Virus record (IMG/VR): IMGVR_UViG_3300042471_001036 | Span: 1 to 46,568 of that record | Reading direction: 5' to 3' (one strand) | DNA: 46,568 bases | Source of the DNA: a virus | Translations under genes and position numbers: made by a program | Shown here: positions 8 through 43,487 of the stretch, in pieces | Layout of the letters: each line of letters opens with the position of its first letter | Numbering within the stretch: position 1 is the first letter of the stretch | The notes under the pieces: model-generated | Told to the model about the DNA's origin: nothing | The model's database searches: none | The model's input: the letters and a program-made list of their open reading frames with translations, nothing else

Positions 8-1108
8 ATGCAGTTATTAAATGAGATAGATAGAATCAAAAGTGTAATGGGTGTGATGACCGAAGATAAAAATTCGCCAAAACATCTTAACATTAATTTA
101 TCAAAAAGTGTGGAGGCTTTAAGGTATCTTAAAATCTATAACCCGACAATTGAGAGGATGTTGATTGAAATTACCAATTTAGCCAAAGAACAAATTATTG
201 ATTTTGGATTGTTAGAGAGAGGACTTAGAAAAGTTCTACTTAAGAAGGGAGACAAAAAAAGAAACGTATCAGACTATTTTGGTAAAATAATCAGTTCTTT
301 AAAATTTAGAGAAAAAAAAGGGTATGGTGTTGAACCTGACGCTGAAGATTATGAATTTGACTTTGACGAAGAACCATCAATCGTCCCAAAGAAAGTTTAC
401 AAAAAAGAAATGTTTGAACTTCAAGTTGAATTGTTGAAATTACAAGAATGGTTAAAGAAAACAGGTAAAACAGTAATCATAGTTTTTGAAGGTAGGGATT
501 CTGCAGGTAAAGGTTCTACAATTAAGAAATTTACAGAAAATTTAAATCCAAGATACTACAATGTGGTTGCTTTAGGGATACCAAGTCCTGAAGATAGAAA
601 AGATTGGTGGGGAAGATACAAAAGAGAAATTAAACCAGGAATGATTAATTTCTTTGATAGAAGTTGGTATAACAGAGGTTTAGTTGAGCCTGTTATGGGA
701 TACGGGTCACCAGAAGAGTATGAGGACTTTATGGAAAACGTTGAGAATTTTGAAAACGATTTAGTTAGAGAAGGAGATTATTTGTTTAAGTTATGGTTTT
801 CAATTGAAAAAGATACTCAAAAAAGAAGATTTGACATCAGACAAAAATCGCCATTAAAATATTGGAAATATTCTCCAAATGATTCAAAAATGCAAGACCT
901 ATGGGATAGATTTACAGAATTTAAAGAAAAACTTTTTGATAAAACCTCCACAGTTAACAATCCTTGGGTTATTATTGATTCACAAGATAAAAGAATATCG
1001 GGATTAAACGCCATTAGATACATTTTACAAAATATTCCTTATGAGGGTAAAGACAAAAAAGTCTTAGAAAAAGAATACCCCGAGGTTGTTGCTGTATTAA
1101 AACCTTAA
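8..1108 (+). CDS. ppk2: PPK2-family polyphosphate kinase with N-terminal extension
   Basis: Predicted polyphosphate:nucleotide phosphotransferase, moving phosphate between polyP and ADP/GDP or AMP. The PPK2 core covers about residues 135-345: Walker A GRDSAGKGS (162-170), Walker B FDRSWYNR (216-223), and a lid with RQKSPLKYWK (278-287). Wording such as YNRGLVEPVMGYG is closest to PPK2 class I. About 130 residues precede the core, starting MQLLNEIDRIKSVMGV, which resembles the starts of several other proteins here (see the tag finding). It is followed after 3 bases by the DUF5872 gene in the same direction. PPK2 is a metabolic enzyme rarely expected in a phage; here it could be virion cargo or could feed nucleotide triphosphate pools. 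The fold is secure; substrate preference is not. Confidence 0.93.
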   Translation: MQLLNEIDRIKSVMGVMTEDKNSPKHLNINLSKSVEALRYLKIYNPTIERMLIEITNLAKEQIIDFGLLERGLRKVLLKKGDKKRNVSDYFGKIISSLKFREKKGYGVEPDAEDYEFDFDEEPSIVPKKVYKKEMFELQVELLKLQEWLKKTGKTVIIVFEGRDSAGKGSTIKKFTENLNPRYYNVVALGIPSPEDRKDWWGRYKREIKPGMINFFDRSWYNRGLVEPVMGYGSPEEYEDFMENVENFENDLVREGDYLFKLWFSIEKDTQKRRFDIRQKSPLKYWKYSPNDSKMQDLWDRFTEFKEKLFDKTSTVNNPWVIIDSQDKRISGLNAIRYILQNIPYEGKDKKVLEKEYPEVVAVLKP

Positions 1109-1111
1109 CAT

Positions 1112-1735
1112 ATGAATTTAAAAGAATTAATTAAAGAAACATTAGAAGAACATTTAGACAAATCTTTAGTTCTTAAAGAGTCGGTTGAAATGTCCGATGC
1201 ATTGAAATACCATGTTGAAAATGGTATGACATTAACGAACAATATCTTCAGAACATACTCTGAGAGTTATTTCAATTTAGTAAACGAAGTAAGAGCTCTT
1301 TGGGAGAACGGGTTAATTAAATTGAACGAAGAGGATACTCTTATGGTTGAATCCGACTTAGGTAAAAAAATTATGGTTAATGGAAAATTAATTTATCTTG
1401 ATGCTCCTTTCATTTATGAAGATGAGGAAGACGAGGAAGTTTTAGAGGAAGCAAAACACAGAGGTAAAAATGTTAAACTTAATAAACCATTCAGAACTTC
1501 TGGTGGGGCAAAAAAGTTTTCGGTTTACGTTAAATCAAAAAGTGGAGGTATTAAAAAGGTATCGTTTGGTGACCCTAATTTAAGAGTAAGAAATAAGAAC
1601 AAAGGAGCTGCAAAATCTTTTAGAGCAAGACACAAATGTGACCAAAAGAAAGATAGAACCACCGCAGGATACTGGTCTTGTAATGTTGGGAGATATGCAA
1701 AACAATTAGGACTTTCTTCTTCAAACTCTTGGTAA
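1112..1735 (+). CDS. DUF5872-domain phage protein with N-terminal tag
   Basis: The C-terminal part (about 118-195) matches the DUF5872 pattern from memory: KLNKPFRTSGG, KKFSVYVK, VSFGDPNLRV, FRARHKCDQ and YWSCN, with two conserved cysteines (176, 190). The domain is common in tailed-phage proteins of unknown role. The N-terminus MNLKELIKETLEEHL is a short charged amphipathic helix containing IKE, like the capsid-targeting tags proposed for this genome. The middle is acidic (EDEEDEEVLEEA near 103-114). It sits between ppk2 and the next gene, whose ATG overlaps this stop codon (TAATG), so it is part of one operon. Likely a virion-associated protein; exact function unknown. Confidence 0.8.
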   Translation: MNLKELIKETLEEHLDKSLVLKESVEMSDALKYHVENGMTLTNNIFRTYSESYFNLVNEVRALWENGLIKLNEEDTLMVESDLGKKIMVNGKLIYLDAPFIYEDEEDEEVLEEAKHRGKNVKLNKPFRTSGGAKKFSVYVKSKSGGIKKVSFGDPNLRVRNKNKGAAKSFRARHKCDQKKDRTTAGYWSCNVGRYAKQLGLSSSNSW

Positions 1736-4193: not shown

Positions 4194-5174
4194 ATGAATC
4201 TAATAGATTTTCCAATAGAAAGAATAAATCAGTTTTTTGAAAACCACATCTTTGAGGTTTATTTACAACCAACACATGATGAGGATTTTTCTCTGCCAAC
4301 AAATGTTAAGGTAAAACTAACAGGTGTTAAAGATTATATTAGTATTGGAGATAAAAAACCTCACGTTGAGTATACCGCATATATTCTACCAACAAACGAA
4401 AACTCAGACAGATGGAGTAGTGTGTTCGGTCAGGTGTACGGTAACGACATTGATATCAATACAAGTAGTCAAGAATATGCAAATTTAAGGTGGGTTATTA
4501 GTGATAAACTAACAAATTTTTTAAAATATTTTGGCATTGAAATGCCAGCAATATGTACTAAAGTAATAAATGAGGTAAGGGCAATGAAATTAACAGAAGG
4601 TATTATAACAGAAGGTGTTTTAGATAAGACAACAAGAAAGCTGGTTCAAGACGTTATTAAGTTTTTTAAGCACCAAAGAAAGGGTGAGTTCGGATTACCT
4701 GAAGATTTGAGTGACGAGGAGATGGTATATAATTTACCAGGGTTTGAAGGGTTTACCATATTTTTAGATTTACAAACTGATGAGAACATTGAAGGTGTAG
4801 ATGTTGACGGTGATTTATATTTTGACGATGATTTGGTAAACATTACAATTATATCTAACCCTGAATCAGGATATTCTAATTTGGATGAATTAACTAGAGA
4901 ACTTAATGACATTATAAGACACGAGTTAGAACATATCAAACAACATAGGGAGGGTATGAAAATTCCGAAAAAAGAACCAAAATCTCCTGAAAAATATTAC
5001 ACACAACCACACGAACTTGGAGCTCAGAGAGCTGGTTTTAGAAAAAGAGCCAAATCAGAAAAGTCCGATTTTGAAACTATTGTAAGACAATGGTTTGAAA
5101 AAAATTCTCATAAACATAACTTGAATCCTAACCAAAAAGAGAGAGTTATTCAGAAAATTTTGGACACAAAATAA
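4194..5174 (+). CDS. HExxH metalloprotease-like phage protein
   Basis: 326 residues in two parts. Residues 1-128 resemble the small proteins at 1735/2030 (INQFFENHI, VKVKLTGV, VEYTAYILP, ISDKLTNFLKYFGIE). Residues 131-150 carry a tag-like stretch (MKLTEGIITEGVLDKTTRKL) and the rest is a putative zinc peptidase: RHELEHIKQH gives HExxH at 243-247, and QPHELGAQRAGF offers a downstream glutamate (274) as third ligand. Zincin-like proteins of this kind occur in phage virions, perhaps maturing other proteins. The arrangement, a family domain fused through a tag-like linker to a protease, is unusual. Stop overlaps the next gene's ATG (TAATG). Confidence 0.75.
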   Translation: MNLIDFPIERINQFFENHIFEVYLQPTHDEDFSLPTNVKVKLTGVKDYISIGDKKPHVEYTAYILPTNENSDRWSSVFGQVYGNDIDINTSSQEYANLRWVISDKLTNFLKYFGIEMPAICTKVINEVRAMKLTEGIITEGVLDKTTRKLVQDVIKFFKHQRKGEFGLPEDLSDEEMVYNLPGFEGFTIFLDLQTDENIEGVDVDGDLYFDDDLVNITIISNPESGYSNLDELTRELNDIIRHELEHIKQHREGMKIPKKEPKSPEKYYTQPHELGAQRAGFRKRAKSEKSDFETIVRQWFEKNSHKHNLNPNQKERVIQKILDTK

Positions 5175-5914
5175 TGACGAGTAGAATAGAAAATATAATT
5201 AAAAGATTTTTACTTGAAAACGAATTTGAAATTGATGAAAACCGATTCAAATTTCTTTCCGTTGAACCGTATGACCTTCATAGTAAGATGGCCTTCAGAT
5301 TCAAGGTTAATGTCATATTACCAAGAGAAAATATGTGTTATGCTGTACCAAAATTTGACGGGAACATACAAGACATATTAATCAATCTTTGGAATTATAT
5401 TGGAACGCAATTTTCATATTCAATAGATAAAATATTTGTTAATGGAAAAATACCTGAATACCCAATATACATTACACCCGAAAAACAAAAAGAAATTATA
5501 TCAAGTTTAAATAACGATGTTGGGAGAATAGAACTTAGAGGTAAAGAATTTAGAGTTGATTTTAATACTGGATTCAGACCCGCAAAAGATTATTTTTATG
5601 AGTTAAGTGATGTTAATATTAATTTTTATTTTACCGTACAAGCGAGTTCTTTTCAAGAAAACGGGAAACCAATTAACCCTAATTTAGATAAAATAGATGA
5701 TTTAGGTGCGGCAATTTCAGAAGGAATGAATGATAATGATTACATTAGAAATTTTGTTGAGAATGTAATCTATAGAATATTAGAACCAGATATGAGAGTT
5801 ATGAATGTTGATGACTTATATTATAATGTCTCATTCTACGTTAACAAAATAGATGGAATTGAAGTTTCAGGGAGTGATTGGGGTGTCTATATAACTCGAG
5901 AATTATTTACTTAA
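5174..5914 (+). CDS. Tagged phage protein of the 1735/2030 family type
   Basis: 246 residues, unknown function. It begins MTSRIENIIKRFLLENEFEI, a charged amphipathic helix containing LLE as in the proposed targeting tags. Two similar halves can be sensed: FRFKVNVILP with ILINLWNYIGTQF, and NFYFTVQA with FVENVIYRIL, echoing the strand-helix-strand plan of the 1735 and 2030 proteins. It overlaps the 4194 stop by one base and converges on the 5907 gene with an 8-base overlap of the ends. Probably a virion or morphogenesis protein. Confidence 0.7.
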   Translation: MTSRIENIIKRFLLENEFEIDENRFKFLSVEPYDLHSKMAFRFKVNVILPRENMCYAVPKFDGNIQDILINLWNYIGTQFSYSIDKIFVNGKIPEYPIYITPEKQKEIISSLNNDVGRIELRGKEFRVDFNTGFRPAKDYFYELSDVNINFYFTVQASSFQENGKPINPNLDKIDDLGAAISEGMNDNDYIRNFVENVIYRILEPDMRVMNVDDLYYNVSFYVNKIDGIEVSGSDWGVYITRELFT

Positions 5915-6527
5915 TTCTATCTATAATTTTCTTAATAGTTCTTGATAAAACCTGACTTCCAATTATAACCACACCCGATGCGGATAATCTTTGAGCAATC
6001 ATAATCGCGGTTTCTTTTGGGTCTCCACCACTCATTGCCGCTTCTTGTATGTCTGTAATTATAGGTATTAAAAAACTATAAGCCACGGTATCCATAAAAC
6101 TACCAGTGCTTACATTCACAGAACTCATAAAATTCAAAAAAGATTCTTTAAGTTGTTTACCCTTGTTAAGTCCAACTTTATAAACATCAGAAAGACCCTC
6201 TTCTTTAATTAATTTTAATAATTTACTTAAAGGACTTTTAGTCTCAAAGAAAAGAGTAAACGCAATTCCCGCCAAAACTAACATCCTTTGATTGTCAGTT
6301 AAATCAAAATTACCTGTCCTAAGATAACGGTCCAAAGGTAAAACCATACCACCAACAGAAGTACCCCATGTTAATAACATTCTTAAGTTCAAACCGTAAG
6401 ATTTAAGAACTCTATTGACAATTTGTTTTGTGAATGAGTTTAATTGTTTCATATACCCATCCATTCTGGACCTTTCCTGTTCAGTTAATATTTTTTTAAG
6501 TTGTGATTCTGTAATTAAAAACTCCAT
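5907..6527 (-). CDS. Tagged multi-pass membrane protein
   Basis: 206 residues. The N-terminus MEFLITESQLKKILTEQE is a very typical form of the tag seen in this genome (ITESQLKKIL). Four hydrophobic stretches follow: about LLTWGTSVGGMVLPL, RMLVLAGIAFTLFF, FMDTVAYSFLIPIIT and ASGVVIIGSQVL. A phage protein with a targeting tag plus membrane segments could be injected and enter the host membrane, or be holin-like. Divergent from the 6562 gene across 34 bases. Confidence 0.75.
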   Translation of the reverse strand: MEFLITESQLKKILTEQERSRMDGYMKQLNSFTKQIVNRVLKSYGLNLRMLLTWGTSVGGMVLPLDRYLRTGNFDLTDNQRMLVLAGIAFTLFFETKSPLSKLLKLIKEEGLSDVYKVGLNKGKQLKESFLNFMSSVNVSTGSFMDTVAYSFLIPIITDIQEAAMSGGDPKETAIMIAQRLSASGVVIIGSQVLSRTIKKIIDRIK

Positions 6528-14245: not shown

Positions 14246-15283
14246 ATGAGAGGATACTTTGGATTAGGTCAATTGTCTGCAACTGAGAAGTCAGACATCT
14301 TGAACCAACATAAAAGTTTATATAACGGATACCAAACAATGCAGCCACAAGTTTCAAATACACAACCTTTGTACGTGTATGATTTTGCTGGTGATAAAGA
14401 CGGTATGGTTGTAAACAATAAAGGTGAAGTTAAGAAATACACAAACATGGGAATCAATGAACAAGTTGAAGAAAAACAAATGTGTTCAGAATGTGGTTCG
14501 GGTTACATGGAAGAAGGTGTTTGTAATGAATGTGGTTCGGGTTACATGGAAGAAGAAACTGGACATTTAGATGATATCTATGATGAACAAGATTTAGACC
14601 CAACAGGTGGGTTTGATTACATTGAAGGACCATCTAATGATGTTGATACGTTTGAAGGTATGCATAAAAATCTTTACAAAGAAGATGAATATGAAAATAC
14701 GGACAATGAAGATGATGGATTTGAAGATATTGAATCAGGTGAAGAAATGGACGAACAAGGATATACTGGTGGTGGAAACGCCCCTGATATGGACTTAAGT
14801 AACATTGACCCAGCATATGATTTCATTTCTGACGGACCAATGGCGGGAGGAGATGTCTATCCAACTGAAGAAATGGACGAACAATGTTTAGATTGTGATG
14901 AAGAGTATGAAACTATGGAATCTGCGTGGGCGGAATCAGAAATGGACGAAGTAGATGTATCAGGTTCTCAAGGAATTTATGGTGACATGGAAAGTGCTTA
15001 TGACTTTGATAGTGAAGGACCAGGAAAGGCAGGACCTTACCAACGTTCATCATACAATGAAAACGAAGTTGAAGAACAAAGAAGAAAAAGAGATGATGAC
15101 GACTTTGAAGAAGATGAGTTAGAAATTGATTTTGGCAAATTTGACCCGAGAGACAAATCGTGGGAAGAAATCAAATCTTACACAGGTGATTGGGATGAGG
15201 TTGACGAAGATTTACAAGAGTCTTTTATCTCACAAAAGAACAAAGTAATGGAAATGATGAACAGAATGAAAATTATAAAATAA
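14246..15283 (+). CDS. Acidic repeat protein with zinc-ribbon and tag
   Basis: 345 residues, very acidic. The N-terminus ATEKSDILNQHKSLYNGYQ matches the start of the 20364 protein (SEKKNILSMHKSLMKEQ), and GINEQVEE follows at about 69-76, as in the other tagged proteins. Four cysteines (80, 83, 93, 96) in two direct repeats CxxCGSGYMEE make a zinc ribbon. The rest holds three diverged modules of GFDYIEGP / AYDFISDGP / AYDFDSEGP, each followed by an acidic EMDEQ-type spacer. The low-complexity acidic character suggests a scaffold or internal head protein. Monocistronic, between its own leader and the terminator at 15284. Confidence 0.8.
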   Translation: MRGYFGLGQLSATEKSDILNQHKSLYNGYQTMQPQVSNTQPLYVYDFAGDKDGMVVNNKGEVKKYTNMGINEQVEEKQMCSECGSGYMEEGVCNECGSGYMEEETGHLDDIYDEQDLDPTGGFDYIEGPSNDVDTFEGMHKNLYKEDEYENTDNEDDGFEDIESGEEMDEQGYTGGGNAPDMDLSNIDPAYDFISDGPMAGGDVYPTEEMDEQCLDCDEEYETMESAWAESEMDEVDVSGSQGIYGDMESAYDFDSEGPGKAGPYQRSSYNENEVEEQRRKRDDDDFEEDELEIDFGKFDPRDKSWEEIKSYTGDWDEVDEDLQESFISQKNKVMEMMNRMKIIK

Positions 15284-19472: not shown

Positions 19473-20360
19473 ATGGTACAACCACAATACAGCCCACAAG
19501 AGGCGCTAGACAGAATAAAATTGATGATGAAGTATGATACTTCAAAAACGTTAAATGAAAACGTTGAAACAATTAAACAACCAGTAAATGAGGTTGCCCC
19601 ATTAGTTATTCCTGCAATTACAATCGCAGCACCTTGGCTTTGGGCCGCAGGGGCAACCGCAGCAGCAGCTGTAGGTGCTTGGATTTATAAGGTCCAAGGA
19701 GGAGGAGACGCTTTTAGTAAAACCCAAACATTTTTACAAGGATGTTCTTCACTTGATAAAAACTTAAAACCAACTCAAAGTAAAGGAGACCACAGAGAGG
19801 CTGCGGATTCAATATACAACGCTATTCAAGGAATAGGTACTGATGAGGATGCAATTAAAGGAGCTATATCATCGATGGAAACTGTTGCCGACCTTTGTGC
19901 AATGGCGAAATACTACAATAAAGTTTATGGTGATTTATATGATGACTTAGATAGTGATATTGATGGAGAAGATTTTAGAAAATATGTTTGGTCAGCAATT
20001 GCACCTATAGTTGACGACGCTGAAGAAGATTTGGCAAAATCAAAAGAAGAAGGTGGTAAAGAAGAAGGTGATGGTAAAAAGAAAAAAGGCGGAGGCGGAG
20101 GAACTGGTGGCGGATATAAACCATGTTCAGGAAGCTACACTAAAGGATGTAAGTCTGATGCAATTGCAAAAGTTCAAGGATGTTTAGGATTAGTTACCGA
20201 CGGTAAATTTGGTCCAAAAACTGAAGCGGCGTTAAAGGCAAAAGGATTTTCATCATTTACAGATGCAGAGGTTGATAAAATCTGTAATAAACCAACAACA
20301 ACACCTACAGTAGATTCTGATGAAGAAGATGTTGATGGAGTAGACCCAAATCAAATTTAA
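19473..20360 (+). CDS. Tagged protein with annexin-like and peptidoglycan-binding domains
   Basis: 295 residues. Tag: PQEALDRIKLMMKYDTSKTL then LNEN (residues 27-30). A hydrophobic stretch at about 42-72 (IPAITIAAPWLWAAGATAAA) can cross a membrane. Residues 110-172 look like one annexin repeat: AADSIYNAIQGIGTDEDAIK, ending LDSDIDGEDFRKY; GIGTDE is the type II calcium-binding loop. Glycine/lysine-rich linker, then a PG_binding_1-like domain at 224-260 (AIAKVQGCLGLVTDGKFGPK). A membrane- and wall-binding protein carried in the virion would suit genome delivery. The annexin resemblance rests on motif reading only. Confidence 0.75.
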   Translation: MVQPQYSPQEALDRIKLMMKYDTSKTLNENVETIKQPVNEVAPLVIPAITIAAPWLWAAGATAAAAVGAWIYKVQGGGDAFSKTQTFLQGCSSLDKNLKPTQSKGDHREAADSIYNAIQGIGTDEDAIKGAISSMETVADLCAMAKYYNKVYGDLYDDLDSDIDGEDFRKYVWSAIAPIVDDAEEDLAKSKEEGGKEEGDGKKKKGGGGGTGGGYKPCSGSYTKGCKSDAIAKVQGCLGLVTDGKFGPKTEAALKAKGFSSFTDAEVDKICNKPTTTPTVDSDEEDVDGVDPNQI

Positions 20361-20363: not shown

Positions 20364-21380
20364 ATGAAACAGTTTTTAATAGAAGAAGAATCAGAAAAGA
20401 AAAATATTTTGTCAATGCACAAATCTTTGATGAAAGAACAAACTAAAGCGACGGGAGAATTATCTCCTGAAGAAGGTCTTTTACGTAAAGCTATTAGTGC
20501 TGGATGTTTGAAAAACGGTTCATTAAAACGTCAAAAATCTACAGGTAAACTATACTACAAGAAAGAAAGTACTAAACAAGTTGGAAAATTTGTTAGATTT
20601 TTTCCTGACATGACTTTTGCATTTGAAGACGGAAGTAGAAAAGGAAAATGGGTTTGTCCTCAATTAGCAAATGCAACTGCGACTGAAATTACAACACAAC
20701 AAACAACGGCAGATAACGAATCTAAAATTGCGACCGAAATTAAAAAAGGTTGGAAAAAATTAGAAACTTTAAGAGCTGAAGGAGTTGATTTAACAACATT
20801 AGATAAAGTTTACGACACTCAAGTTGTTGGTAACGTAACATTATACAGACCAAAAGGTTCCTCAACAAATTTTACACCAAACACTTCAACAACAGATTTT
20901 AACAAAGACCAATTATCATTCATTTCTACGTTTGAACAAAAAGGATATAAGTTAAATCCAAGTAGAATCGAACAATCAACTTTGGTAAAGGTTACCGATA
21001 AAGATTTAGGTGCACCTGCAGACCTTTTCCCTAATGGATTGGTTATGTGGTATAATCCTAATACTCAAGACGATATTAAAAGAAATGATGGAAGCGTTCT
21101 TTCGGATGTTCTTTCAAATCAATCAATTAATAGACAAGCTTGTAGAAAAAATGTTACGGATTACTTCGAAACATTCAGAAGAAAAAATAGTATTGTCATT
21201 GACCCAGCAACAATTAACAAAGCGAAAAGAATTGTACAAGCTTGTAAGGATGAACACTATGGTAAATGGGGTATTGCAGGTGGTGGAAATAGATTAGACA
21301 ATTATTTAGATATATTATCAGGAAATAAAGAAGGTGGTCCAACATCATACGGAGACGATTCAATTTGGAGAATAAAGTAA
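20364..21380 (+). CDS. Tagged virion-type protein
   Basis: 338 residues, three bases after the preceding gene. The tag FLIEEESEKKNILSMHKSLMKEQ parallels the start of the 14246 protein. The middle is a small beta domain (KLYYKKESTKQ, VRFFPDMTFAFEDGSRKG), and the C-terminal third is helical (NRQACRKNVTDYFETFRRKN). Function unknown; organisation points to a cargo or structural role. Confidence 0.75.
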   Translation: MKQFLIEEESEKKNILSMHKSLMKEQTKATGELSPEEGLLRKAISAGCLKNGSLKRQKSTGKLYYKKESTKQVGKFVRFFPDMTFAFEDGSRKGKWVCPQLANATATEITTQQTTADNESKIATEIKKGWKKLETLRAEGVDLTTLDKVYDTQVVGNVTLYRPKGSSTNFTPNTSTTDFNKDQLSFISTFEQKGYKLNPSRIEQSTLVKVTDKDLGAPADLFPNGLVMWYNPNTQDDIKRNDGSVLSDVLSNQSINRQACRKNVTDYFETFRRKNSIVIDPATINKAKRIVQACKDEHYGKWGIAGGGNRLDNYLDILSGNKEGGPTSYGDDSIWRIK

Positions 21381-21389: not shown

Positions 21390-22094
21390 ATGTTAGATAA
21401 AAACATCAAAAAAGCAATTTTAGAAACTAAAGAAAGGAAAGAAAAACTTTTGATTGAAGAAAATTTAGTCAAAAGTAGAATTATGATGATTTTTGAGTCA
21501 GAAAAAAACATCAAAAATTTTAGTTCTCTTCCTAAGAAAAAACAAGAAAAAATTGCTTATAAACTTTTAGAAGAAATTAATTACCTACAAGAAACAAGTT
21601 TGTTGAATGAACAACTTATGGACTTTTTAGGTAAAATCTTTGGGAATAGTTTAGGAGGTATTTTTCAAACGGTTGCTGAACCTTTAGTTAATTCAGTATT
21701 AAGTGCAATTGGACTAAAAGGATATTTTAAAGATTTTTTAGTTTCATTTATAACAACAAACCCTGCAAGATTAGCTAAAGCAATGAAAAGTTGTGAAGAA
21801 CTTACAAAATTAATTGCTGAGGCGTTGTCTGAGGCGGTCTTCATGATGATTCAAAGACAACAAGGATTAGAAGGTCAAGGATATACGTTCCTTAGAAATG
21901 CTTTAGGAGGCGCGGTTAAAGATTATGGGTTTATACAAAGTATTGAAAAACAGATAAGTGGAATAGTTTGTGAATTGTTTGGAAAAATGAATGATAAAGC
22001 TTCAGGAGTTTACGACAAACTTAAAACTGATGTTACTAGTGGTGGTCTTGGAGGTCTAATTCCATCTTTGGGAACTTCAGCTACGCCAAAATAA
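21390..22094 (+). CDS. Tagged helical protein, possible membrane-active
   Basis: 234 residues. Charged N-terminal helices (NIKKAILETKERKEKLLIEE; SRIMMIFESEKNI) end with SLLNEQLMDFLG (about 73-84), the LNEQ junction typical of the tag. The rest is amphipathic/hydrophobic with glycines (FGNSLGGIFQTVAEPLVN, LVSFITTNPARLAKAM), ending GGLGGLIPSLGTSATPK. Could be a membrane-inserting cargo protein. Third of three consecutive tagged genes. Confidence 0.7.
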   Translation: MLDKNIKKAILETKERKEKLLIEENLVKSRIMMIFESEKNIKNFSSLPKKKQEKIAYKLLEEINYLQETSLLNEQLMDFLGKIFGNSLGGIFQTVAEPLVNSVLSAIGLKGYFKDFLVSFITTNPARLAKAMKSCEELTKLIAEALSEAVFMMIQRQQGLEGQGYTFLRNALGGAVKDYGFIQSIEKQISGIVCELFGKMNDKASGVYDKLKTDVTSGGLGGLIPSLGTSATPK

Positions 22095-22152: not shown

Positions 22153-22183
22153 AAAAAAGAAGGGTTATTTACCCTTCTTTTTT
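22153..22183. terminator. Bidirectional terminator
   Basis: AAAAAAGAAGGGT / ACCCTTCTTTTTT hairpin; it overlaps the end of clpP on the minus strand and follows the 21390 gene after 60 bases. Confidence 0.85.
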
Positions 22184-22845
22184 GTTTTAACAATTTCATC
22201 AATAATTCCGTAAGCTAACGCCTCTTCACTATCTAACCATAAATCACGAGTTGCATCAAGTTTAACTTGTTCTGCGGTTTTACCACAATATTCACCTAAA
22301 AGGTCAAATAAAGTATCGTTGATTTTTTCCCATTCTTTAAATGATACTCTAGCGTCTTGGATATTTCCACCAGCACCTCCTGAAGATTGGTGTAACATAG
22401 TTCTTGAGAACTTTAATGAACTTCTTTTACCTTTAGTTCCTGCACCTAACAATACTGACCCCATAGATGCTGCCATACCTGTGTTAATAGTTCTAATATC
22501 ACAAGCGATGTAATTCATAACATCAACCATAGATAAACCAGATTTAACACTTCCACCTGGAGAGTCAATATGCATTGTAATATCTGTTTTATCGCTTGAA
22601 TCCAAGAACATTAATTGAGCTTGAACTATTGTTGACATATGGTCATTAACAGGACCCGCAACCCATAGAATCCTATCTCTCATTAATCTTGAAAAGATAT
22701 CAATTTGAGTTGCCCTCAATTCCCTTTCTTCCAAAATATAAGGAGTCATGGAAGATTCGATATGGTTTGAAAAATTATGTAAATCCAATGAAGACTTACC
22801 TAAATGTTTAACGTAGTAGTTTTGAAAATCTTGTCCTATATTCAT
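22165..22845 (-). CDS. clpP: ClpP-like serine protease
   Basis: 226 residues. Catalytic triad S127 (GMAASMGSVL), H152 (RTMLHQSSGG) and D201 (TRDLWLDSEEA); MHIDSPGGSV (91-100) forms the substrate-binding glycine-rich loop. The N-terminal 50 residues are longer than in bacterial ClpP. No ClpX/ClpA ATPase lies in the window, so it may join host ATPases or act as a prohead-type protease; phages of T5 or lambda type use ClpP-fold enzymes for head maturation. That would suit the tagged-protein hypothesis. Own promoter upstream. Confidence 0.93.
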   Translation of the reverse strand: MNIGQDFQNYYVKHLGKSSLDLHNFSNHIESSMTPYILEERELRATQIDIFSRLMRDRILWVAGPVNDHMSTIVQAQLMFLDSSDKTDITMHIDSPGGSVKSGLSMVDVMNYIACDIRTINTGMAASMGSVLLGAGTKGKRSSLKFSRTMLHQSSGGAGGNIQDARVSFKEWEKINDTLFDLLGEYCGKTAEQVKLDATRDLWLDSEEALAYGIIDEIVKTKKKGK

Positions 22846-29817: not shown

Positions 29818-30309
29818 ATGAAGTTAAAAACATTCTTATTGACTGTGTTGTTATTGTTAGGAACAATGACAACAAAAGCACAAGAGAAGCAAGTACAAAC
29901 AACTTATCAGACACAAGATGATAGGTTGACAAAAGAAGAATTGTACGAGCAGATAATTAAGTTTGGTATAAAATTTCCTGATATTGTGTTTGCACAAGCT
30001 GTGTTAGAGTCAGGAGCATTTACATCAAAATTGTTCAAAACGGCAAACAATCTGTTTGGAATGAGAGTTCCAACAAAAAGAGAAACGTCTTCAGTTGGTA
30101 AAACTCAGAGCGGATACTCAAAATATACAGATTGGAACCTTAGCGTATATGATTACTTTTTATGGCAAGATTATATGTTAAAAGGTAAAGACGATTTGAC
30201 AAAAAATCAGTATCTTGCACTACTCGGAAGGGTATATGCGTCTGATAAGAGATATGTTAGTAGTTTAAAACGAGTAATCGGAGAACATCAACACATCTTA
30301 ACAAATTAA
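29818..30309 (+). CDS. Secreted glucosaminidase (Bax/FlgJ-like)
   Basis: 163 residues: Sec signal MKLKTFLLTVLLLLGTMTTKAQ, then a glucosaminidase domain. FAQAVLESGAFTSKLFKTAN carries the catalytic glutamate (E64) and NNLFGMR the conserved following motif; YTDWNLSVYDYFLW is the aromatic tail of the family. It cleaves peptidoglycan glycan strands in the periplasm, so it is a candidate exported endolysin or a wall-remodelling enzyme. Sits between tRNA genes, so likely transcribed with them. Confidence 0.9.
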   Translation: MKLKTFLLTVLLLLGTMTTKAQEKQVQTTYQTQDDRLTKEELYEQIIKFGIKFPDIVFAQAVLESGAFTSKLFKTANNLFGMRVPTKRETSSVGKTQSGYSKYTDWNLSVYDYFLWQDYMLKGKDDLTKNQYLALLGRVYASDKRYVSSLKRVIGEHQHILTN

Positions 30310-33338: not shown

Positions 33339-33757
33339 TAAATGTCTGAGTAAATCACCAATTGGTTTTCACCCACTCTAAAAGGGTTGTATTTGGATTC
33401 TCTGAATACTGTTTTGATAATTAATTGCCAATAAGTTCCTCCAATATGAACAGGAGTTATTGCCATGGCTAATTCCCATTTTAAGGACTTTACAACAAAA
33501 TCTACTTCAGGGTTAATTTCCCTTGAAACTATTTTTTCGGCAATATCTTTTTTTACTGTACTGATAATCTCTCTAATTTCAGCGTTAACAATCGGTCTTA
33601 CATTATACCCTTCAATATCATCTCTTGTGTCTCTATCAAAGGCGTGAGTGGTCCTGTTTACGTCAAATAGGAATACTACTTCTAAAGACGAATTAACTTG
33701 AGTGATTCTTTTTTCAAGTAATAATTCTTCCTTAATGATTTGTCTCAATGTTTTCAT
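33338..33757 (-). CDS. Tagged phage protein
   Basis: 139 residues. N-terminus MKTLRQIIKEELLLEKRI is close in style to T4 capsid-targeting sequences (for example MKTYQEFIAEA of internal proteins). The rest is an alpha/beta domain (SLEVVFLFDVNRTTHAFDRD, VNAEIREIISTVKKDIAEKI, YWQLIIKTVFRESKYNPF). Function unknown; probably head-directed. Confidence 0.75.
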   Translation of the reverse strand: MKTLRQIIKEELLLEKRITQVNSSLEVVFLFDVNRTTHAFDRDTRDDIEGYNVRPIVNAEIREIISTVKKDIAEKIVSREINPEVDFVVKSLKWELAMAITPVHIGGTYWQLIIKTVFRESKYNPFRVGENQLVIYSDI

Positions 33758-34202: not shown

Positions 34203-34207
34203 CAAAT

Positions 34208-34280: not shown

Positions 34281-34286
34281 CAATAA

Positions 34287-34360: not shown

Positions 34361-34386
34361 CATTAGAAAAATTAAATAAAATTGTG

Positions 34387-34394
34387 TATATTTG
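34387..34394 (+). promoter_or_regulatory. Leaderless -7 element
   Basis: TATATTTG four bases before the ATG at 34399. Confidence 0.65.
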
Positions 34395-34398
34395 TAAT

Positions 34399-34810: not shown

Positions 34811-34816
34811 AACAAT

Positions 34817-34888
34817 GGTCGGGTGGCCGAGCGGCTTAGGCGTTAGTCTGCAAAACTAATTACCCCAGTTCGATTCTGGGTTCGACCT
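34817..34888 (+). tRNA. tRNA-Cys (GCA)
   Basis: Stem TTAGT/ACTAA around CTGCAAA; discriminator T as required for Cys. Confidence 0.93.
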
Positions 34889-34902
34889 CAAAAAATAAAC
34901 TT

Positions 34903-35145
34903 ATGGAAACAGACACAAGAGTATTAAACGATTTCAGAAGAAGAATGGACAAACTGGGAATCAAATGTGAATTCGCAGGTAACATTCCATGGATTTATCT
35001 TGAAAAAGTTAATGGAAAAAGAGTAACCGAACGTTTTTGTGGAAACCACGGATTTACCGTGGCATTCTATCCAATCCGTGTCGGACAAAAGATGGAACTT
35101 ACAGATATCGGAGAGATAATGAAGATTATCAGGAAGTATAGGTAA
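34903..35145 (+). CDS. Small conserved phage protein
   Basis: 80 residues. DFRRRMDKLGIKCEFAGNIP, WIYLEKVNGKRV, CGNHGFTVAFYP are strands and loops of a small phage family without known function; it lies between two tRNA genes. Confidence 0.8.
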   Translation: METDTRVLNDFRRRMDKLGIKCEFAGNIPWIYLEKVNGKRVTERFCGNHGFTVAFYPIRVGQKMELTDIGEIMKIIRKYR

Positions 35146-35150
35146 TATAA

Positions 35151-35224
35151 GCGGGTGTAGCTCAGTTTGGTAGAGTACTGGTCTCCAAAACCAGTTGTCG
35201 GGAGTTCGAACCTCTCCACCCGTG
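35151..35224 (+). tRNA. tRNA-Trp (CCA)
   Basis: Stem CTGGT/ACCAG around CTCCAAA; acceptor GCGGGTG/CACCCGT; discriminator G as usual for Trp. Confidence 0.92.
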
Positions 35225-35457
35225 CAAAACATACAGTATAATCAGTCAAGCCGTATTTAGCTGTTAGTGTATGTTAGATAAGAGAAGGAGACGGCTGGGA
35301 CATTCTATTATCGTTTTATAGGTTGATTGGGGAATGGTGGTACCTATGACATGAGAGTGTATTTTGGTCGGTATCATCGGAGTTGGGAGAAATACACCTG
35401 AGTAATGCCAATCGTAAAAGGAGATGTCCACTCGACCATCTTCTCCTTTCCTAACTT
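35225..35457 (+). other. Unexplained structured non-coding stretch
   Basis: 233 bases between tRNA-Trp and tRNA-Tyr with no credible ORF. Four local hairpins: 35228-35235/35268-35275 (8 bp), 35318-35323/35342-35347 (6 bp), 35357-35364/35390-35397 (8 bp) and 35417-35424/35442-35449 (8 bp). No known RNA family recognised; RNase P, tmRNA and 6S signatures are absent. Confidence 0.45.
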
Positions 35458-35537
35458 GGGAGTGTTGAGCAACGGTTGCTTAGCAGACTGTAAATCTGTG
35501 GTCGTCGACATTGGGGGTTCGAATCCCTCCACTCCCA
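35458..35537 (+). tRNA. tRNA-Tyr (GTA)
   Basis: Perfect acceptor GGGAGTG/CACTCCC; stem GCAGA/TCTGT around CTGTAAA; 80 bases. Confidence 0.95.
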
Positions 35538-35545
35538 CACTAAAG

Positions 35546-35616
35546 TGTCCTTTAGTATAACGGTAGTACAGGTGGTTTTGGTCCATCCAGTTGGGGTTCG
35601 AATCCCTGAGGGACAA
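35546..35616 (+). tRNA. tRNA-Gln (TTG)
   Basis: Loop TTTTGGT; acceptor TGTCCTT/AGGGACA. Confidence 0.92.
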
Positions 35617-35620
35617 CAAC

Positions 35621-35692
35621 GGTTTTATGGTGTAATGGATAGCACACGAAACTACGGATTTCGGAGTTTGGGTTCGAGTCCTAATAAAACCA
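35621..35692 (+). tRNA. tRNA-Arg (ACG)
   Basis: Stem CGAAA/TTTCG around CTACGGA; A34 should be converted to inosine by host TadA. Confidence 0.93.
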
Positions 35693-35698
35693 CTAAAC

Positions 35699-35768
35699 TG
35701 CGTGGCTTAGTGGGAAAGAACTTTCTCTCATAAGGAAGGTCAAGTGAGTTCGAACCTCATACACGCAA
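35699..35768 (+). tRNA. tRNA-Ile2 or tRNA-Met (CAT)
   Basis: Second CAT tRNA; loop CTCATAA, weak anticodon stem, one acceptor mismatch next to the T-arm. Lacks the initiator G-C run. One of the two CAT tRNAs probably reads AUA after lysidine modification. Confidence 0.8.
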
Positions 35769-35773
35769 CATAT

Positions 35774-35848
35774 GGTGTCTATAGCTCAGTAGGTAGAGCG
35801 CTTGATTGTGGTTCAAGTTGTCACGGGTTCGATTCCCGTTAGTCACCC
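35774..35848 (+). tRNA. tRNA-His (GTG)
   Basis: Stem CTTGA/TCAAG around TTGTGGT; discriminator C as required for His; one T-T mismatch in the acceptor. Confidence 0.92.
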
Positions 35849-35948
35849 AAAAGTGTTTACAACGGACAAGGCTTAGGCGTAAGTACGATGACCACAGGGG
35901 GAATCGTCATACTGCGGTGGGTAGCGAGTGGTTGACCAAAACACTTTT
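35849..35948 (+). ncRNA. Structured inter-tRNA RNA, second example
   Basis: A 100-base element filling the spacer between tRNA-His and tRNA-Ser(TGA). A perfect 10-bp stem (35849-35858 with 35939-35948, AAAAGTGTTT/AAACACTTTT) closes it. Inside, 35882-35884/35911-35913 and 35885-35889/35903-35907 form a bulged hairpin. It shares GGCGYAAGT, a following hairpin, and GTGG(C/T)TGA near the 3' end with the element at 32308, so the two may be one RNA class. Confidence 0.5.
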
Positions 35949-35952
35949 ATTT

Positions 35953-36039
35953 GGAGGAATGGCAGAGCGGTTGATTGCACCAGTCTTGAAAACTGGCATA
36001 CTCGAAAGGGTATCTGGGGTTCGAATCCCTGTTCCTCCG
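35953..36039 (+). tRNA. tRNA-Ser (TGA)
   Basis: 87 bases, perfect acceptor GGAGGAA/TTCCTCC, stem CCAGT/ACTGG around CTTGAAA, long variable arm, discriminator G. Confidence 0.95.
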
Positions 36040-36044
36040 CAAAT

Positions 36045-36214
36045 TGTAAGGTGGCGAAATTAGGTTGTCTCAGTTATGACCTTGGCATACGCACCCTCCT
36101 GTCTCGGGGGCGGGGACAAAGAAATAGATTGATAATATGGGGTAGACCACCAGCTTGCAAGCGTTGTGTTATCAATTGAATCTCCTCTTGAAGGTTCGAC
36201 TCCTTCCCTTACAG
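36045..36214 (+). other. Abnormal tRNA-like element with about 90 extra bases
   Basis: Acceptor TGTAAGG (36045-36051)/CCTTACA (36207-36213) and T-arm GAAGG-TTCGACT-CCTTC (36190-36206) are normal, and GCG (36054-36056) can pair with CGC (36090-36092) as a D-stem. But a 21-base hairpin (36062-36082) sits in the D-loop, and a hairpin 36128-36135/36169-36176 lies in an enormous variable region. The best anticodon arm is CCCTC/GGGGG (36094-36110), loop CTGTCTC. No group I intron motifs. It may be a degenerate tRNA, a tRNA with an insertion, or a tRNA mimic. Confidence 0.5.
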
Positions 36215-36219
36215 CACAT

Positions 36220-36293
36220 TGGAATATAGCTCAGTTGGTTAGAGCGCTATCCTGATACGGTAGATGTCGATGGTTCGAATCCATCTATTCCAA
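36220..36293 (+). tRNA. tRNA-Ile (GAT)
   Basis: Perfect acceptor TGGAATA/TATTCCA, stem CTATC/GGTAG around CTGATAC. Confidence 0.95.
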
Positions 36294-36294
36294 C

Positions 36295-36633
36295 ATGGAA
36301 TCACAAATTAAAAAAAAACAGACAAACAGAACAAAGTTTAAAAAAATTGTTAAAGAGTACAAAGAGGCTACCACATTTGAAATTTGGGAAGGAGTTAGAG
36401 ATAATTTTACTTTTGGTTTTATTGGTGCGACTATTGTTGTATTCATTGCAACAAGAACGGATTTAGCGGTGTTATTAGGGTACTTAACATATTACTTTTA
36501 TATGGGTAAGATTGTTAACAGACCAAAATACGTTACAGATTTAGGTAAAATGATTGTTTTCCCATTACCATCAGCTCTTGGTGCGTTTACAGGATATAAA
36601 TTATCTTATTATTTAATACAATTATTACAATAA
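36295..36633 (+). CDS. Small membrane protein
   Basis: 112 residues beginning one base after tRNA-Ile. Basic N-terminus (KKKQTNRTKFKKIVKEYK), then hydrophobic helices (FGFIGATIVVFIATRTDLAV, LLGYLTYYFYMG, PLPSALGAFTGYKLSYYLI). No family recognised. Confidence 0.75.
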   Translation: MESQIKKKQTNRTKFKKIVKEYKEATTFEIWEGVRDNFTFGFIGATIVVFIATRTDLAVLLGYLTYYFYMGKIVNRPKYVTDLGKMIVFPLPSALGAFTGYKLSYYLIQLLQ

Positions 36634-36719
36634 GGAGGGTTACCCAAGTTGGTGAAGGGGCCTGTTTGCTAAACAGGTAGGGTGTAACAGCCGCGTTGGT
36701 TCGAGCCCAACACTCTCCG
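36634..36719 (+). tRNA. tRNA-Ser (GCT)
   Basis: Starts directly after the preceding stop codon; stem CCTGT/ACAGG around TTGCTAA; discriminator G; long variable arm. Confidence 0.95.
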
Positions 36720-36835
36720 CATAACAAAATTTTAACAAAAAAAAACTTTTAAAATAATTGACACATAAGATAATTCTTCATATATTTATGGTTCATAAGT
36801 TAATAAAATACATAACAAACAAAAAACAAAAAAAC

Positions 36836-37076: not shown

Positions 37077-38954
37077 TTATAACATCTTTTTAATTTTTTC
37101 TATATTTTCATTAACCTTTTTTCTATTGAATGGGTCTTTTAAGAAATTTAAAACCCATGGGTCTACTTGTTGTTTGTCGGCAACACCACCATATCTTTTT
37201 TCTGTTCTGTTACCTGACTTATCATATTTATCTTGAAACAATTTACCTGGAATACCCATAATAGATGCCATAAGAGGGTCAAAATACTCAGGGTCAGAAC
37301 TTTTTCTTGTTTTATCTACCTCTTCTTCTTTATCCTTTTCTTTTTTATCTATTTTTAAATCCTTAGAAGGAATATTAATTCTATTCCACCTACTATCATA
37401 CATAATAGCTTCTACATCCGAATCAGTAGTACCTAATACATCACCAACATTTACTCTCCTACCATTACTAACTTTTACATTTGATATACCACAATATTGT
37501 AAATAAACAGTTCCGTTGTCATTATTTTCAATAGTTAATTGATTTGCGCAACCCGAAAAATACTTTTTATTGTTAATAACACCAGATATTGGAGATTTAA
37601 TTTTTGGATTATCATCTTTTGGAATTATAACCCTACCATATCTGTTTGATATATTTTTACCAAAATTTCTCTGCTCATTCAACCCTTCGGCACTTGTCAC
37701 AGTCCCAACAACTTCTGCATATTTTGGAATACTTGATGATGTTTGTGAAGATTGTTTACTAACGGCATAATCATACGCTTTTGATGATGCGTCATCAGTA
37801 GAAGGAGAATTACTAATTTCTCCTCCAGTAATTTGTTGACCTTTTGCACATTTCATTGTACCATCATCATTCAAAAACTGTCGTATGTTTCCAGTCTCAA
37901 CTCCAATGTGAACGTGGTCGTAACTACTATTAGGAAAATCCATAATATAACCTAAAAATTGACCGCACTTGATTGTTGCTCCTTTTGTTACAGGTGAGCC
38001 TTCCAAATGTGTGTAATAAATACTTGGAAGACCTCCGTCACTTTTCACTGTAAAACTTTGACCGTAAAGTTTTTTTCCTTGGGTTGCTCTAACCTCTCTT
38101 CCATAGTCTGAAAATGTTTGGGCAACTCCATCGGCTAATGCATAAACAGGTGTACCTACGGGTGCCGCAATATCCCAAGCATTATTACTTTGCCATCCTG
38201 ATTGACCTGCGTGAGCCCCGTCTACAGGTATTTTTACGTTATTACCACCAAATAATTCACTACTTGCGGAAGAGGCTTCTTTAAGAATTATATCGTAAAG
38301 TTTTAAAATTTCTTGTATTTCTTCGTTCATTCCTTCTGCACTTGTTACTGTACCAACAACCTCAGCATATTTTGGTGATGAACTTGTTGTGGATTTATTT
38401 TTAGACGTTGCATAATCATACGCATCTTCTGATGCTTTAGACGAGGATTCAGGGGTACTTCCTGTCATGACAATACCTTCTTTGCCAATAAAATTCATAG
38501 GGTCAACAACTTGACCATCTTTTCTTAAAGTAAAATGTAAATGTCTACCATCACTTCTACCTTTACCAGGGTCATTAGGACCACCACCACTAATTCCGAT
38601 TACTTCACCTTTTTGAACTTTTTGACCTGCTCTTACATTAATTTTTTGCATGTGGCAATACCCTGATTTATAACCGTCAGCATGATTAATCATGATAGTA
38701 CCTCCACAATCATCATTTTTGATTGCGGCAATGTCAACAACACCATCCGCAGGAGATTTAACATTTGCTGCGTCCGCAGCTAAATCAACACCATTATGTA
38801 ATCTACCCCATCTTGGTCCAAAACCAGAATTTACTCTTACAGTATCTAATGGAGCTTCCAAAGCGGCTTCATTTAAACCAATCGTTTTTATAATTGACTT
38901 TTGTGATTCGGTAATCTGATTGTAGATTTCTAAGATTTTTTTATCTATGCTCAT
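37077..38954 (-). CDS. Multi-module M23 peptidase with repeated tags
   Basis: 625 residues from ATG 38954 (13 upstream codons rejected). Tag IYNQITESQKSIIKTIGLNEA. Module 1 is an intact LytM/M23 domain: HNGVDLA (HxxxD), YCHM, and RHLHFTLR (HxH). Module 2 keeps THLE and DHVHIGVE but has NNAWDIA instead of HxxxD. Module 3 (RVIIPKDDNPKIKSPISGV onward) has lost the histidines. Modules are separated by two near-identical linkers ending PKYAEVVGTVTSAEG followed by MNEE or LNEQ. Cuts peptidoglycan peptide bridges; modules 2-3 may only bind. A virion lysin is the likely role. Confidence 0.85.
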   Translation of the reverse strand: MSIDKKILEIYNQITESQKSIIKTIGLNEAALEAPLDTVRVNSGFGPRWGRLHNGVDLAADAANVKSPADGVVDIAAIKNDDCGGTIMINHADGYKSGYCHMQKINVRAGQKVQKGEVIGISGGGPNDPGKGRSDGRHLHFTLRKDGQVVDPMNFIGKEGIVMTGSTPESSSKASEDAYDYATSKNKSTTSSSPKYAEVVGTVTSAEGMNEEIQEILKLYDIILKEASSASSELFGGNNVKIPVDGAHAGQSGWQSNNAWDIAAPVGTPVYALADGVAQTFSDYGREVRATQGKKLYGQSFTVKSDGGLPSIYYTHLEGSPVTKGATIKCGQFLGYIMDFPNSSYDHVHIGVETGNIRQFLNDDGTMKCAKGQQITGGEISNSPSTDDASSKAYDYAVSKQSSQTSSSIPKYAEVVGTVTSAEGLNEQRNFGKNISNRYGRVIIPKDDNPKIKSPISGVINNKKYFSGCANQLTIENNDNGTVYLQYCGISNVKVSNGRRVNVGDVLGTTDSDVEAIMYDSRWNRINIPSKDLKIDKKEKDKEEEVDKTRKSSDPEYFDPLMASIMGIPGKLFQDKYDKSGNRTEKRYGGVADKQQVDPWVLNFLKDPFNRKKVNENIEKIKKML

Positions 38955-40110: not shown

Positions 40111-40326
40111 TTAATTATTATCAAAATTGATTTTATTCATTTCTTCTATAGATAATTTTTCCATTTTCCACTCTAACCATACATCCATGTCCTTTAGTTG
40201 TTCTAATGTATTTTCGTGAACTAAAACAAACCCTTCAGGGGCGATTCCATGAAATTTTCTGATATGACCTTCTTCTTTGATTAATTTCTTAATGTCAATT
40301 GTCGTCAGTTTTTCTTGTTTTTCCAT
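40111..40326 (-). CDS. Small hypothetical protein
   Basis: 71 residues, helical and charged (TTIDIKKLIKEEGHIRKFHG, LEQLKDMDVWLEWKMEKL). Overlaps the thioesterase gene end by 32 bases. Not recognised. Confidence 0.65.
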   Translation of the reverse strand: MEKQEKLTTIDIKKLIKEEGHIRKFHGIAPEGFVLVHENTLEQLKDMDVWLEWKMEKLSIEEMNKINFDNN

Positions 40327-41730: not shown

Positions 41731-41791
41731 ATGTATTTATATAAAAAACAACGCGGAATTCGCATAAATTTTAAATACCTACATATGGAAG

Positions 41792-42016
41792 ATGGTGAAA
41801 AGAATGAAAACGTGGAGAAGGAGCCTCCAAGACAACCTATCACAGGTATTTTTAATGCTCGCGTTATTTTTCAATCCTTTTGGATTCGATGCCGTTCAAT
41901 ACTCCCTAATATTACTGACAGGAAGTTTATGGAGCGCAAACTTCGTTTTGTATTGTGTTGCGGGGTTGTTTTTTGGATTATATATCTACTTTCGAAGGTT
42001 ATCTAAAGAGCCTTGA
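41792..42016 (+). CDS. Small membrane protein
   Basis: 74 residues. Two hydrophobic segments with VFLMLALFFNPFGFDAVQYS and LYCVAGLFFGLYIYF, a pattern shared by small phage and bacterial membrane proteins. The other plus frame here is a worse candidate. Overlaps the convergent YGxxTxWC gene by 14 bases. Confidence 0.7.
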   Translation: MVKRMKTWRRSLQDNLSQVFLMLALFFNPFGFDAVQYSLILLTGSLWSANFVLYCVAGLFFGLYIYFRRLSKEP

Positions 42017-43487
42017 GCTTACCTTCTTTGAAGGCCTCAAAATTTGGACCTTTGATGAGGAAATAATCTTTTCCTATTTTTCTATAATTTAAAATTCCAG
42101 CATTTTTTGCTGCGGCAAAGAATGAAGAATGTTGACCTCTTAAGTCTCGAGGATTATATAGAAAACCAAGTTTACTTTTTCTAAATTGTGTTTTACCGTC
42201 TTGAGTTATTTTTTCTAAATAACCAATATCTGTGAGGAAATCTAGTTTTGTTCCTATCTTTCCTTTATCCAAATAATCAACAAGTTTTTTAACCCAACCT
42301 TTATTTTTACCAAATTTGTAACCATAGGTAGACCTAAAAACTCTTGAAGAACCTGCAACTTTTTGAAGTAATTTTGGATTGTTTTTAATGTGGTCTAATA
42401 CTCTTGTTACAATGTGTCTTCTAACACCTTCAGCGGTTTCTGCGGGGGTTTTACCAAGATAGTATGTTGAATCAATTCCCCACCCTTCAAGACCAAGGTC
42501 CTCAAAATCATCACCCGCAACCTCATCATTCCCCATAAACCCTATGCTGGCAGAGAACGTTCTATCATCTTTACTTTTGTACGTAATAAAAACTTGATAT
42601 TCGTCAATTAATTTATTTTCTGTGTCCGATTTTAAAGAAACTGATAAGCGGGCTTCGGAATGTCCAAAACCTAAATCGAGGATGTTTTGGAACCCTCTTA
42701 TATAAGTTGTTAAATTATAATTAGAATTTAAGTAATTTTTAGCTTCAACAGAATTCTCACCCACTTTATCAAAAGTTTCTATCAAAAATCTGTCTGTCAT
42801 TGACCCCTTGTAAACCTTATAGTCATTTTTAATTGACTCAATCATTTCAGGAAATGCATATTCAAATACATCAATTTCTCTTTGACTCATTGGTGAATCT
42901 TGAGCATCCCAATATCTCATAAACCCTTCATCATCAAAATGGATTGCAACTTTTGAATAATTTTTGTTTGTGGATTTGGCTTTGTTGATAATAAAATATA
43001 ACGATTGACGACCTGAGGTATATCTACCAAAATGACCTGAACCTTTTGATGTAACACACCACTTAGTGTTTGAGCCATACTTACAAGAAGCTTCTTCAGT
43101 TTTTGGTTGAATCACCACAAAATCTCCTTTTTCATAGATTTTTTTAGATTGACCTTCTAATTCTTTTTCTTTCTCTTTTTCATGGAATGGTAATAAAGCT
43201 CCTTCTAATTCAGAAAAAGTATTATATTGATTAATATCTTTCTTATTTAATTGAGATTGATATTTGTCAAAATCTTGTATTAACCCAACGGCAATATCAA
43301 CATTCATATCAATATCTGAATTTGGGTCTAAAGCCTTTAAAATAAAGTCAGTGTATTTGTGATTGAAATCTACAAGGTCGGAAATATTCAAAATCCAGTT
43401 TAATGTTTCTTCATCAAACTTGTTTGAGTATTTTTTCTTTAGGTCTTCTTTTCTACCTTCTAATATAAGAATTGACATGAATTTCAT
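42003..43487 (-). CDS. YGxxTxWC-domain phage protein, paralogue B
   Basis: 494 residues (start 43487 chosen; 43478 or 43502 possible). The N-terminus SILILEGRKEDLKKKYSNKF carries ILE, as in the tags. KYGSNTKWCVTSKG, FGRYTSGRQSLYFIINK, and YWDAQDSPM form the domain shared with the 2653 protein. The C-terminal 270 residues are beta-rich then basic (KFGKNKGWVKKLVDYLDKGK). Unknown enzyme or virion protein. Confidence 0.75.
   Translation of the reverse strand: MKFMSILILEGRKEDLKKKYSNKFDEETLNWILNISDLVDFNHKYTDFILKALDPNSDIDMNVDIAVGLIQDFDKYQSQLNKKDINQYNTFSELEGALLPFHEKEKEKELEGQSKKIYEKGDFVVIQPKTEEASCKYGSNTKWCVTSKGSGHFGRYTSGRQSLYFIINKAKSTNKNYSKVAIHFDDEGFMRYWDAQDSPMSQREIDVFEYAFPEMIESIKNDYKVYKGSMTDRFLIETFDKVGENSVEAKNYLNSNYNLTTYIRGFQNILDLGFGHSEARLSVSLKSDTENKLIDEYQVFITYKSKDDRTFSASIGFMGNDEVAGDDFEDLGLEGWGIDSTYYLGKTPAETAEGVRRHIVTRVLDHIKNNPKLLQKVAGSSRVFRSTYGYKFGKNKGWVKKLVDYLDKGKIGTKLDFLTDIGYLEKITQDGKTQFRKSKLGFLYNPRDLRGQHSSFFAAAKNAGILNYRKIGKDYFLIKGPNFEAFKEGKLKAL

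What the first reader, a model, noticed from the sequence alone, without database searches (positions are those of the whole stretch)
8..43487. Shared N-terminal tag ending in (L/I)NE or (L/I)xE on about ten unrelated proteins: a proposed capsid-cargo system
Proteins starting at 8, 1112, 5174, 6527(-), 14246, 19473, 20364, 21390, 33757(-), 38954(-) and 43487(-) have different bodies but similar starts: LLNEIDRIK, LKELIKETL, NIIKRFLLEN, ITESQLKKIL, EKSDILNQHKS, ALDRIKLMMKY...LNEN, KNILSMHKS, AILETKE...LLNEQ, LRQIIKEEL, ITESQK...GLNEA, ILILEGR. Nearly all carry (L/I)xE, and several (L/I)NE(Q/N/A) at the junction with the body. T4 internal proteins use N-terminal capsid-targeting sequences cut by the prohead protease after (L/I)xE. 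If the same holds here, PPK2, an M23 peptidase, an annexin-like protein and others are packaged and injected. Caution: LxE is common by chance in acidic helices.
Basis: partly seen in the sequence, partly recalled or inferred. Interest (0 to 1): 0.88.

Follow-up and report, generated by a model that had tools for sequence, protein, structure and literature searches.

The report
Capsid address tags on phage cargo
Large uncultured viruses of bacteria put a few interchangeable N-terminal address tags on dozens of otherwise unrelated proteins, most likely so that these are loaded into the virus head, trimmed free by the head protease and carried into the next cell.

Summary
The shared N-termini are real, but form four tag classes, not one tag. 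In four related 233-321 kb records, 148 of 1371 proteins (gp23 copies included) score as tagged. Two tags pulled from viral contigs sit on 66 body clusters. Conservation ends at (L/I/V)-x-E: 38 of 38 class II and 29 of 29 class I clusters (loci were ranked by tag similarity). The phage encodes a T4-type gp21 protease, portal and gp23, and the known T4 gp23 cleavage site aligns with LINE|A. Best reading: a T4-type capsid-targeting and cleavage system, greatly enlarged, with leaders unlike T4's. Packaging, cleavage and injection are inferred; no virion data were available. The likely protease is gp21-like and outside the window, not the ClpP at 22165.

The parts
8..64 (+). Class I tag of PPK2 (gene 8-1108), MQLLNEIDRIKSVMGVMTE|D
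   Evidence: 20.5 bits in the blind test; E6 and E19 each in 40 of 47 unique sequences; PPK2 E 3.6e-71
1112..1180 (+). Class IV tag of gene 1112-1735 (phrog_7595 C-terminal domain), MNLKELIKE|TLEE...LVLKE|S
   Evidence: 11.3 bits; E9 41 of 45, E23 39 of 45; phrog_7595 E 4.6e-13
6480..6527 (-). Class II/III-like tag of gene 5907-6527(-), MEFLITE|SQLKKILTE|Q
   Evidence: 8.2 bits; E7 21 of 27, E16 24 of 27
14246..14338 (+). Class III tag (residues 1-31) of gene 14246-15283; no [LIVM]xE before residue 72
   Evidence: 9.6 bits; 16 unique aligned sequences keep E14, I18, H22
19473..19559 (+). Class I-like tag of gene 19473-20360 (weak annexin match), ...KTLNE|N
   Evidence: 7.0 bits; LNE or LTE in the ortholog starts listed; annexin E 5.8e-4, below the Pfam cut-off
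20364..20438 (+). Class III tag of gene 20364-21380, ...ILSMHKSLMKE|Q
   Evidence: 16.0 bits; one ortholog only
38868..38954 (-). Class III-like tag of the M23 peptidase (gene 37077-38954), ...ITESQKSIIKTIGLNE|A; further MNE and LNE at residues 211 and 427
   Evidence: 7.4 bits; three M23 stretches, E 4.2e-45
43458..43487 (-). Short T4-length leader of gene 42003-43487, MKFMSILILE|G
   Evidence: (L/I)xE|G in 5 of 5 aligned starts; not found by the profiles
21390..21497 (+). Possible leader of gene 21390-22094, several LxE sites; unproven
   Evidence: not among the 28 best of the blind test; ortholog starts by eye
33713..33757 (-). Possible class IV leader of gene 33338-33757, MKTLRQIIKE|ELLLE|K; unproven
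   Evidence: 4.1 bits; no ortholog
5174..5218 (+).
   Evidence: 6.8 bits, but 4 of 17 listed ortholog starts keep (L/I)xE there
22165..22845 (-).
   Evidence: phrog_94 E 1.5e-35; an S77 protease sits in the head cluster of the same phage
29818..30309 (+). Glucosaminidase with a signal-peptide-like start (by eye); its homolog G001_0223 carries a class I tag instead
   Evidence: Pfam E 9.1e-17

Best explanation
The tags are cleavable capsid-targeting leaders of a T4-type head. A short amphipathic N-terminal helix (four classes: I LxENIxRIKxMMG, II RLTESDLxRLVKRVI, III TEEEKxxILxxHxS, IV MxxLIxKxLKE) docks its protein onto the scaffold core during prohead assembly. The gp21-type (S77) protease then cuts after (L/I)-x-E at the end of the tag, as it would at LINE|A in the capsid protein, and frees the cargo inside the head; the cargo enters the next cell with the DNA. 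Cargo includes PPK2, wall and protein hydrolases, small kinases and many fast-changing proteins without known function. Shown here: the tags, their reuse on different bodies, the conserved site, the T4-type head genes, the homology of the capsid cleavage site. Inferred: docking, cleavage, packaging, injection.
For: Blind profiles find 12 of 151 N-termini in the same phage. 148 of 1371 proteins in four relatives score as tagged against 7 of 830 internal segments, and 17 of 315 against 0 of 170 in LR756508, not used for training. Tags on 153 proteins in 66 body clusters. The tag ends at (L/I/V)xE. T4 gp23 E65 aligns with LINE|A, and 12 of 13 capsid proteins have [LIV]xE there. S77, Gp23 and Portal_T4 in this phage; of 20 further tag-bearing long contigs 13 have S77 and the same 13 have Gp23. 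Core proteins tagged in 1 of 96 homologs against 166 of 1809 overall. Codons vary under the tag.
Against: No virion proteomics or cleavage data. No leader similarity to T4: 0 of 248 T4 proteins match. P1' is mostly Q in class II but A, S or T in the phages' own capsid proteins. 14246 has no nearby site. The signal in this phage alone is modest. 7 of 20 tag-bearing contigs lack both head markers; they may be fragments. The gp22-like scaffold was named from its position only: no Pfam match. Class I and II loci were ranked by similarity to a query that contains the site, which favours a conserved E.
Confidence: 0.75

Rival explanations
1. The tags are real sorting signals for another destination (tail or baseplate, membrane, a phage-made compartment, an assembly chaperone), and LxE is part of the helix, not a cleavage site.
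For: Nothing measured here shows packaging. P1' of class II (mostly Q) differs from the capsid site. 14246 has no LxE near its tag.
Against: Conservation ends at (L/I/V)xE with varying spacing in class I, the same motif as at the capsid site. Tail and baseplate homologs examined carry no tag.
Confidence: 0.14
2. Chance: acidic amphipathic helices with LxE are common, and the likeness is in the eye of the reader.
For: G008 alone shows no excess of high-scoring pairs; about 45% of untagged proteins have [LI]xE in residues 7-45 (498 of 1118).
Against: Blind test, internal controls, 66 body clusters under two tags.
Confidence: 0.03
3. Shared 5' ends come from DNA-level recombination or a shared regulatory sequence, not from selection on the peptide.
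For: Tagged genes crowd into one region in several records.
Against: Synonymous codons vary at invariant positions: Ser in five codons and Leu in four at LTESDL, across 38 body clusters.
Confidence: 0.03
4. The ClpP-like protein at 22165 is the prohead protease for the tags.
Against: The same phage has an S77 protease in the cluster with gp23 and portal, and L/I-x-E is the gp21 specificity (PMC9026906, passages).
Confidence: 0.04

Closest known systems
T4 capsid targeting sequences of internal proteins, with gp21 protease (PMC9026906, PMC3012670, passages read)
   Same: Short N-terminal leader on unrelated bodies, ending in L/I-x-E; S77 protease; gp23 propeptide with its site at the homologous place
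   Different: Leader sequences do not match T4's (0 of 248); four classes; 29-50 proteins per large record instead of a few; unknown whether packaged
phiKZ and SPN3US head propeptides (passages read)
   Same: Large phages with many cleaved head proteins; several cleavage sites per propeptide
   Different: Motif S/A-x-E and often propeptides over 100 residues there; (L/I)-x-E and short leaders here
P1 DarB capsid targeting signal (PMC9024508, passages read)
   Same: N-terminal signal that sends a protein into the head
   Different: One reported protein with about 30 residues sufficient, against dozens of proteins under four tag classes here
bS21-encoding phages of freshwater Bacteroidetes (PMC9723584; abstract, sections 11 and 13, passages read)
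   Same: Same head cluster with bS21 on the opposite strand; genomes up to 331 kb
   Different: The parts that I read do not mention tags; 'N-terminal' occurs twice in the text and the passage shown concerns bS21

Membership tests
T4-type capsid targeting (CTS with gp21) | gp21-family (S77) prohead protease encoded | tested here: met
   PF03420 E 5.4e-23 in G008; 10 of 11 related records
T4-type capsid targeting (CTS with gp21) | gp23-type capsid protein whose propeptide ends in (L/I)xE at the T4 site | tested here: met
   LINE|A aligned with T4 E65; 12 of 13 sequences [LIV]xE (the alignment places a gap just before the T4 site)
T4-type capsid targeting (CTS with gp21) | Short N-terminal leader shared by unrelated proteins | tested here: met
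T4-type capsid targeting (CTS with gp21) | Leader ends in (L/I)xE | tested here: met
   exception 14246
T4-type capsid targeting (CTS with gp21) | Leader sequence homologous to the T4 leader | tested here: not met
   0 of 248 T4 proteins reach 8 bits
T4-type capsid targeting (CTS with gp21) | Scaffold core protein (gp22) | tested here: inconclusive
   Gene in the expected place between protease and gp23, no Pfam match
T4-type capsid targeting (CTS with gp21) | Tagged proteins are in the virion and cleaved after the leader | not testable with these tools
   needs virion proteomics
T4-type capsid targeting (CTS with gp21) | Leader alone packages a foreign protein | not testable with these tools
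   needs a packaging assay
phiKZ/SPN3US propeptides | S/A-x-E cleavage motif | tested here: not met
   class II P3 is I 35, V 2, L 1 of 38
ClpP-type prohead protease system | ClpP-type protease in the head gene cluster | tested here: not met
   The protease in the head cluster is S77; the ClpP-like gene is tens of kb away
bS21 phage group | bS21 on the opposite strand inside the T4-type head cluster | tested here: met
   G008 43597-43788(+), PF01165 E 1e-8

The most novel reading that the evidence does not exclude
These phages run a general protein-delivery system: four interchangeable capsid addresses can be put on almost any protein, each virion carries dozens of different injected proteins, and the tagged region is a fast-turning arsenal that disarms and re-plumbs the host before any phage gene is expressed. 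The four addresses may dock on different scaffold surfaces and so sort cargo within the head.
Probability: 0.45. Interest if true: 0.92.

Novelty: new variant of a known kind. Interest (0 to 1): 0.8.

Why it matters
Most tagged bodies have no known function: the 25 Pfam families listed for 117 tagged proteins add up to 29 member matches. If the tag marks injected cargo, a sequence motif alone names the likely injected proteins of large uncultured phages and turns dozens of anonymous genes per genome into candidates for early host takeover and anti-defence. It would also add new capsid-targeting leaders beside the T4 one. I found no description in print: 'capsid targeting sequence' occurs in 15 held papers (listing seen), and the strings LTESDL, RIKEMMG, RMQKLAGI and RMQQLAGI in none. 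Most subscription papers and all bioRxiv preprints lie outside that library.

Tried and rejected
Pairwise comparison within G008 and G007: no excess over shuffles at high scores. First tag profiles: the class IV model drifted onto gp23; rebuilt without body homologs of G008. Class I and II tags against 50,697 mostly cultured phage records: no match; a local check gave the same hits with masking on and off. A looser tag hit LR756508 and two weak Rhodococcus phage records. The immuto tag hit only immuto records. Protein 1112: no PDB fold match at E 0.001 or better. Considered and rejected: 5174 as a member; ClpP at 22165 as the prohead protease; chance; DNA-level sharing. The small protein at 40111-40326(-) reached 8.2 bits with the first profiles and 4.8 with the blind ones: left open.

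Rows dropped before counts: one search excluded 8 of 86, 4 of 82, 1 of 54, 12 of 36 and 58 of 62 orthologs and collapsed identical ones. could not locate 3 of 158 loci. One search used 117 of 148 tagged proteins (split by a fetch boundary, under 110 residues, gp23 copies, and one short one left out). Searches used 13 and 7 tags chosen as clear examples. Searches return only the best-ranked loci (80 of 446 and 78 from 144). Searches used 20 long contigs picked by hand, some of similar length and score and so perhaps near-copies. One search used 32 annotated immuto proteins of my choice; 29 gave homologs. LR756508 was read for its first 260 of 484 kb.
Full report
What the window is. It is a stretch of a large T4-like phage. 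A 118 kb record (G008) contains all of it at 99.99% identity, on the opposite strand. Outside the window G008 carries a T4-type portal (PF07230, E 8.9e-76), an S77 prohead protease (PF03420, E 5.4e-23), gp23 (PF07068, E 1.1e-71) and, on the opposite strand, ribosomal protein bS21 (PF01165, E 1e-8). This order is the one reported for bS21-encoding phages of freshwater Bacteroidetes with genomes up to 331 kb (PMC9723584; abstract, sections 11 and 13 and passages read). Further related records of 321, 294, 269, 233, 182 and 99 kb were fetched. Of the first 11 related records 10 have S77 and 8 have Gp23 over the cut-off.

Noticed in passing
43928-46566 (-); complete copies at G008 61412-65091 (+): The phage carries an outer-membrane beta-barrel protein (OMP_b-brl_3, E 1.5e-26; 825 aa in G008) next to a 401-aa protein with a lipoprotein-like start (by eye): possible receptor change or superinfection exclusion.
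   Followed up: partly
23497-26758 (-): Two adjacent carbamoyltransferases (Carbam_trans_C E 5.5e-51 and 5.7e-67), possibly for DNA or sugar modification.
   Followed up: no
28179-36720 (+): 23 tRNA genes, all on the + strand, interleaved with small genes.
   Followed up: no
G003 near 31-35 kb and 233-238 kb: One 269 kb record holds two different S77/gp23 sets (gp23 copies G003_0043 and G003_0344, 32% and 74% identical to G008): a two-capsid phage or a joined assembly.
   Followed up: no
G008_0042 (34721-35413 -), G001_0084 (101177-102070 -): Proteins beside gp23 start with a short LKE|A or INE|A leader and carry a class IV-like stretch near their C-terminal part.
   Followed up: no
G008 4667-5140 (+) and family members in G001, G002, G003, G004, G007: WYL-like family (sub-threshold Pfam match) with a T4-length leader that keeps [LI]xE in all six members listed, mostly missed by the profiles: tagged counts are probably too low.
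   Followed up: partly
NC_055915.1 25061 and 111675 (L184, L186): A cultured Flavobacterium phage has two class I-like tags (MKKQILSEQFxRMQxLAGIITES): a laboratory entry point.
   Followed up: partly
37077-38954 (-): The M23 region also matches PDB phage chains named Gp16 (9m7n, E 7.2e-5) and Internal protein (9k2v, E 5.8e-4).
   Followed up: no
L390-L396: Seven class II tag places in cellular genome records, three of them from one Alphaproteobacteria MAG; whether these contigs are phage was not checked.
   Followed up: no
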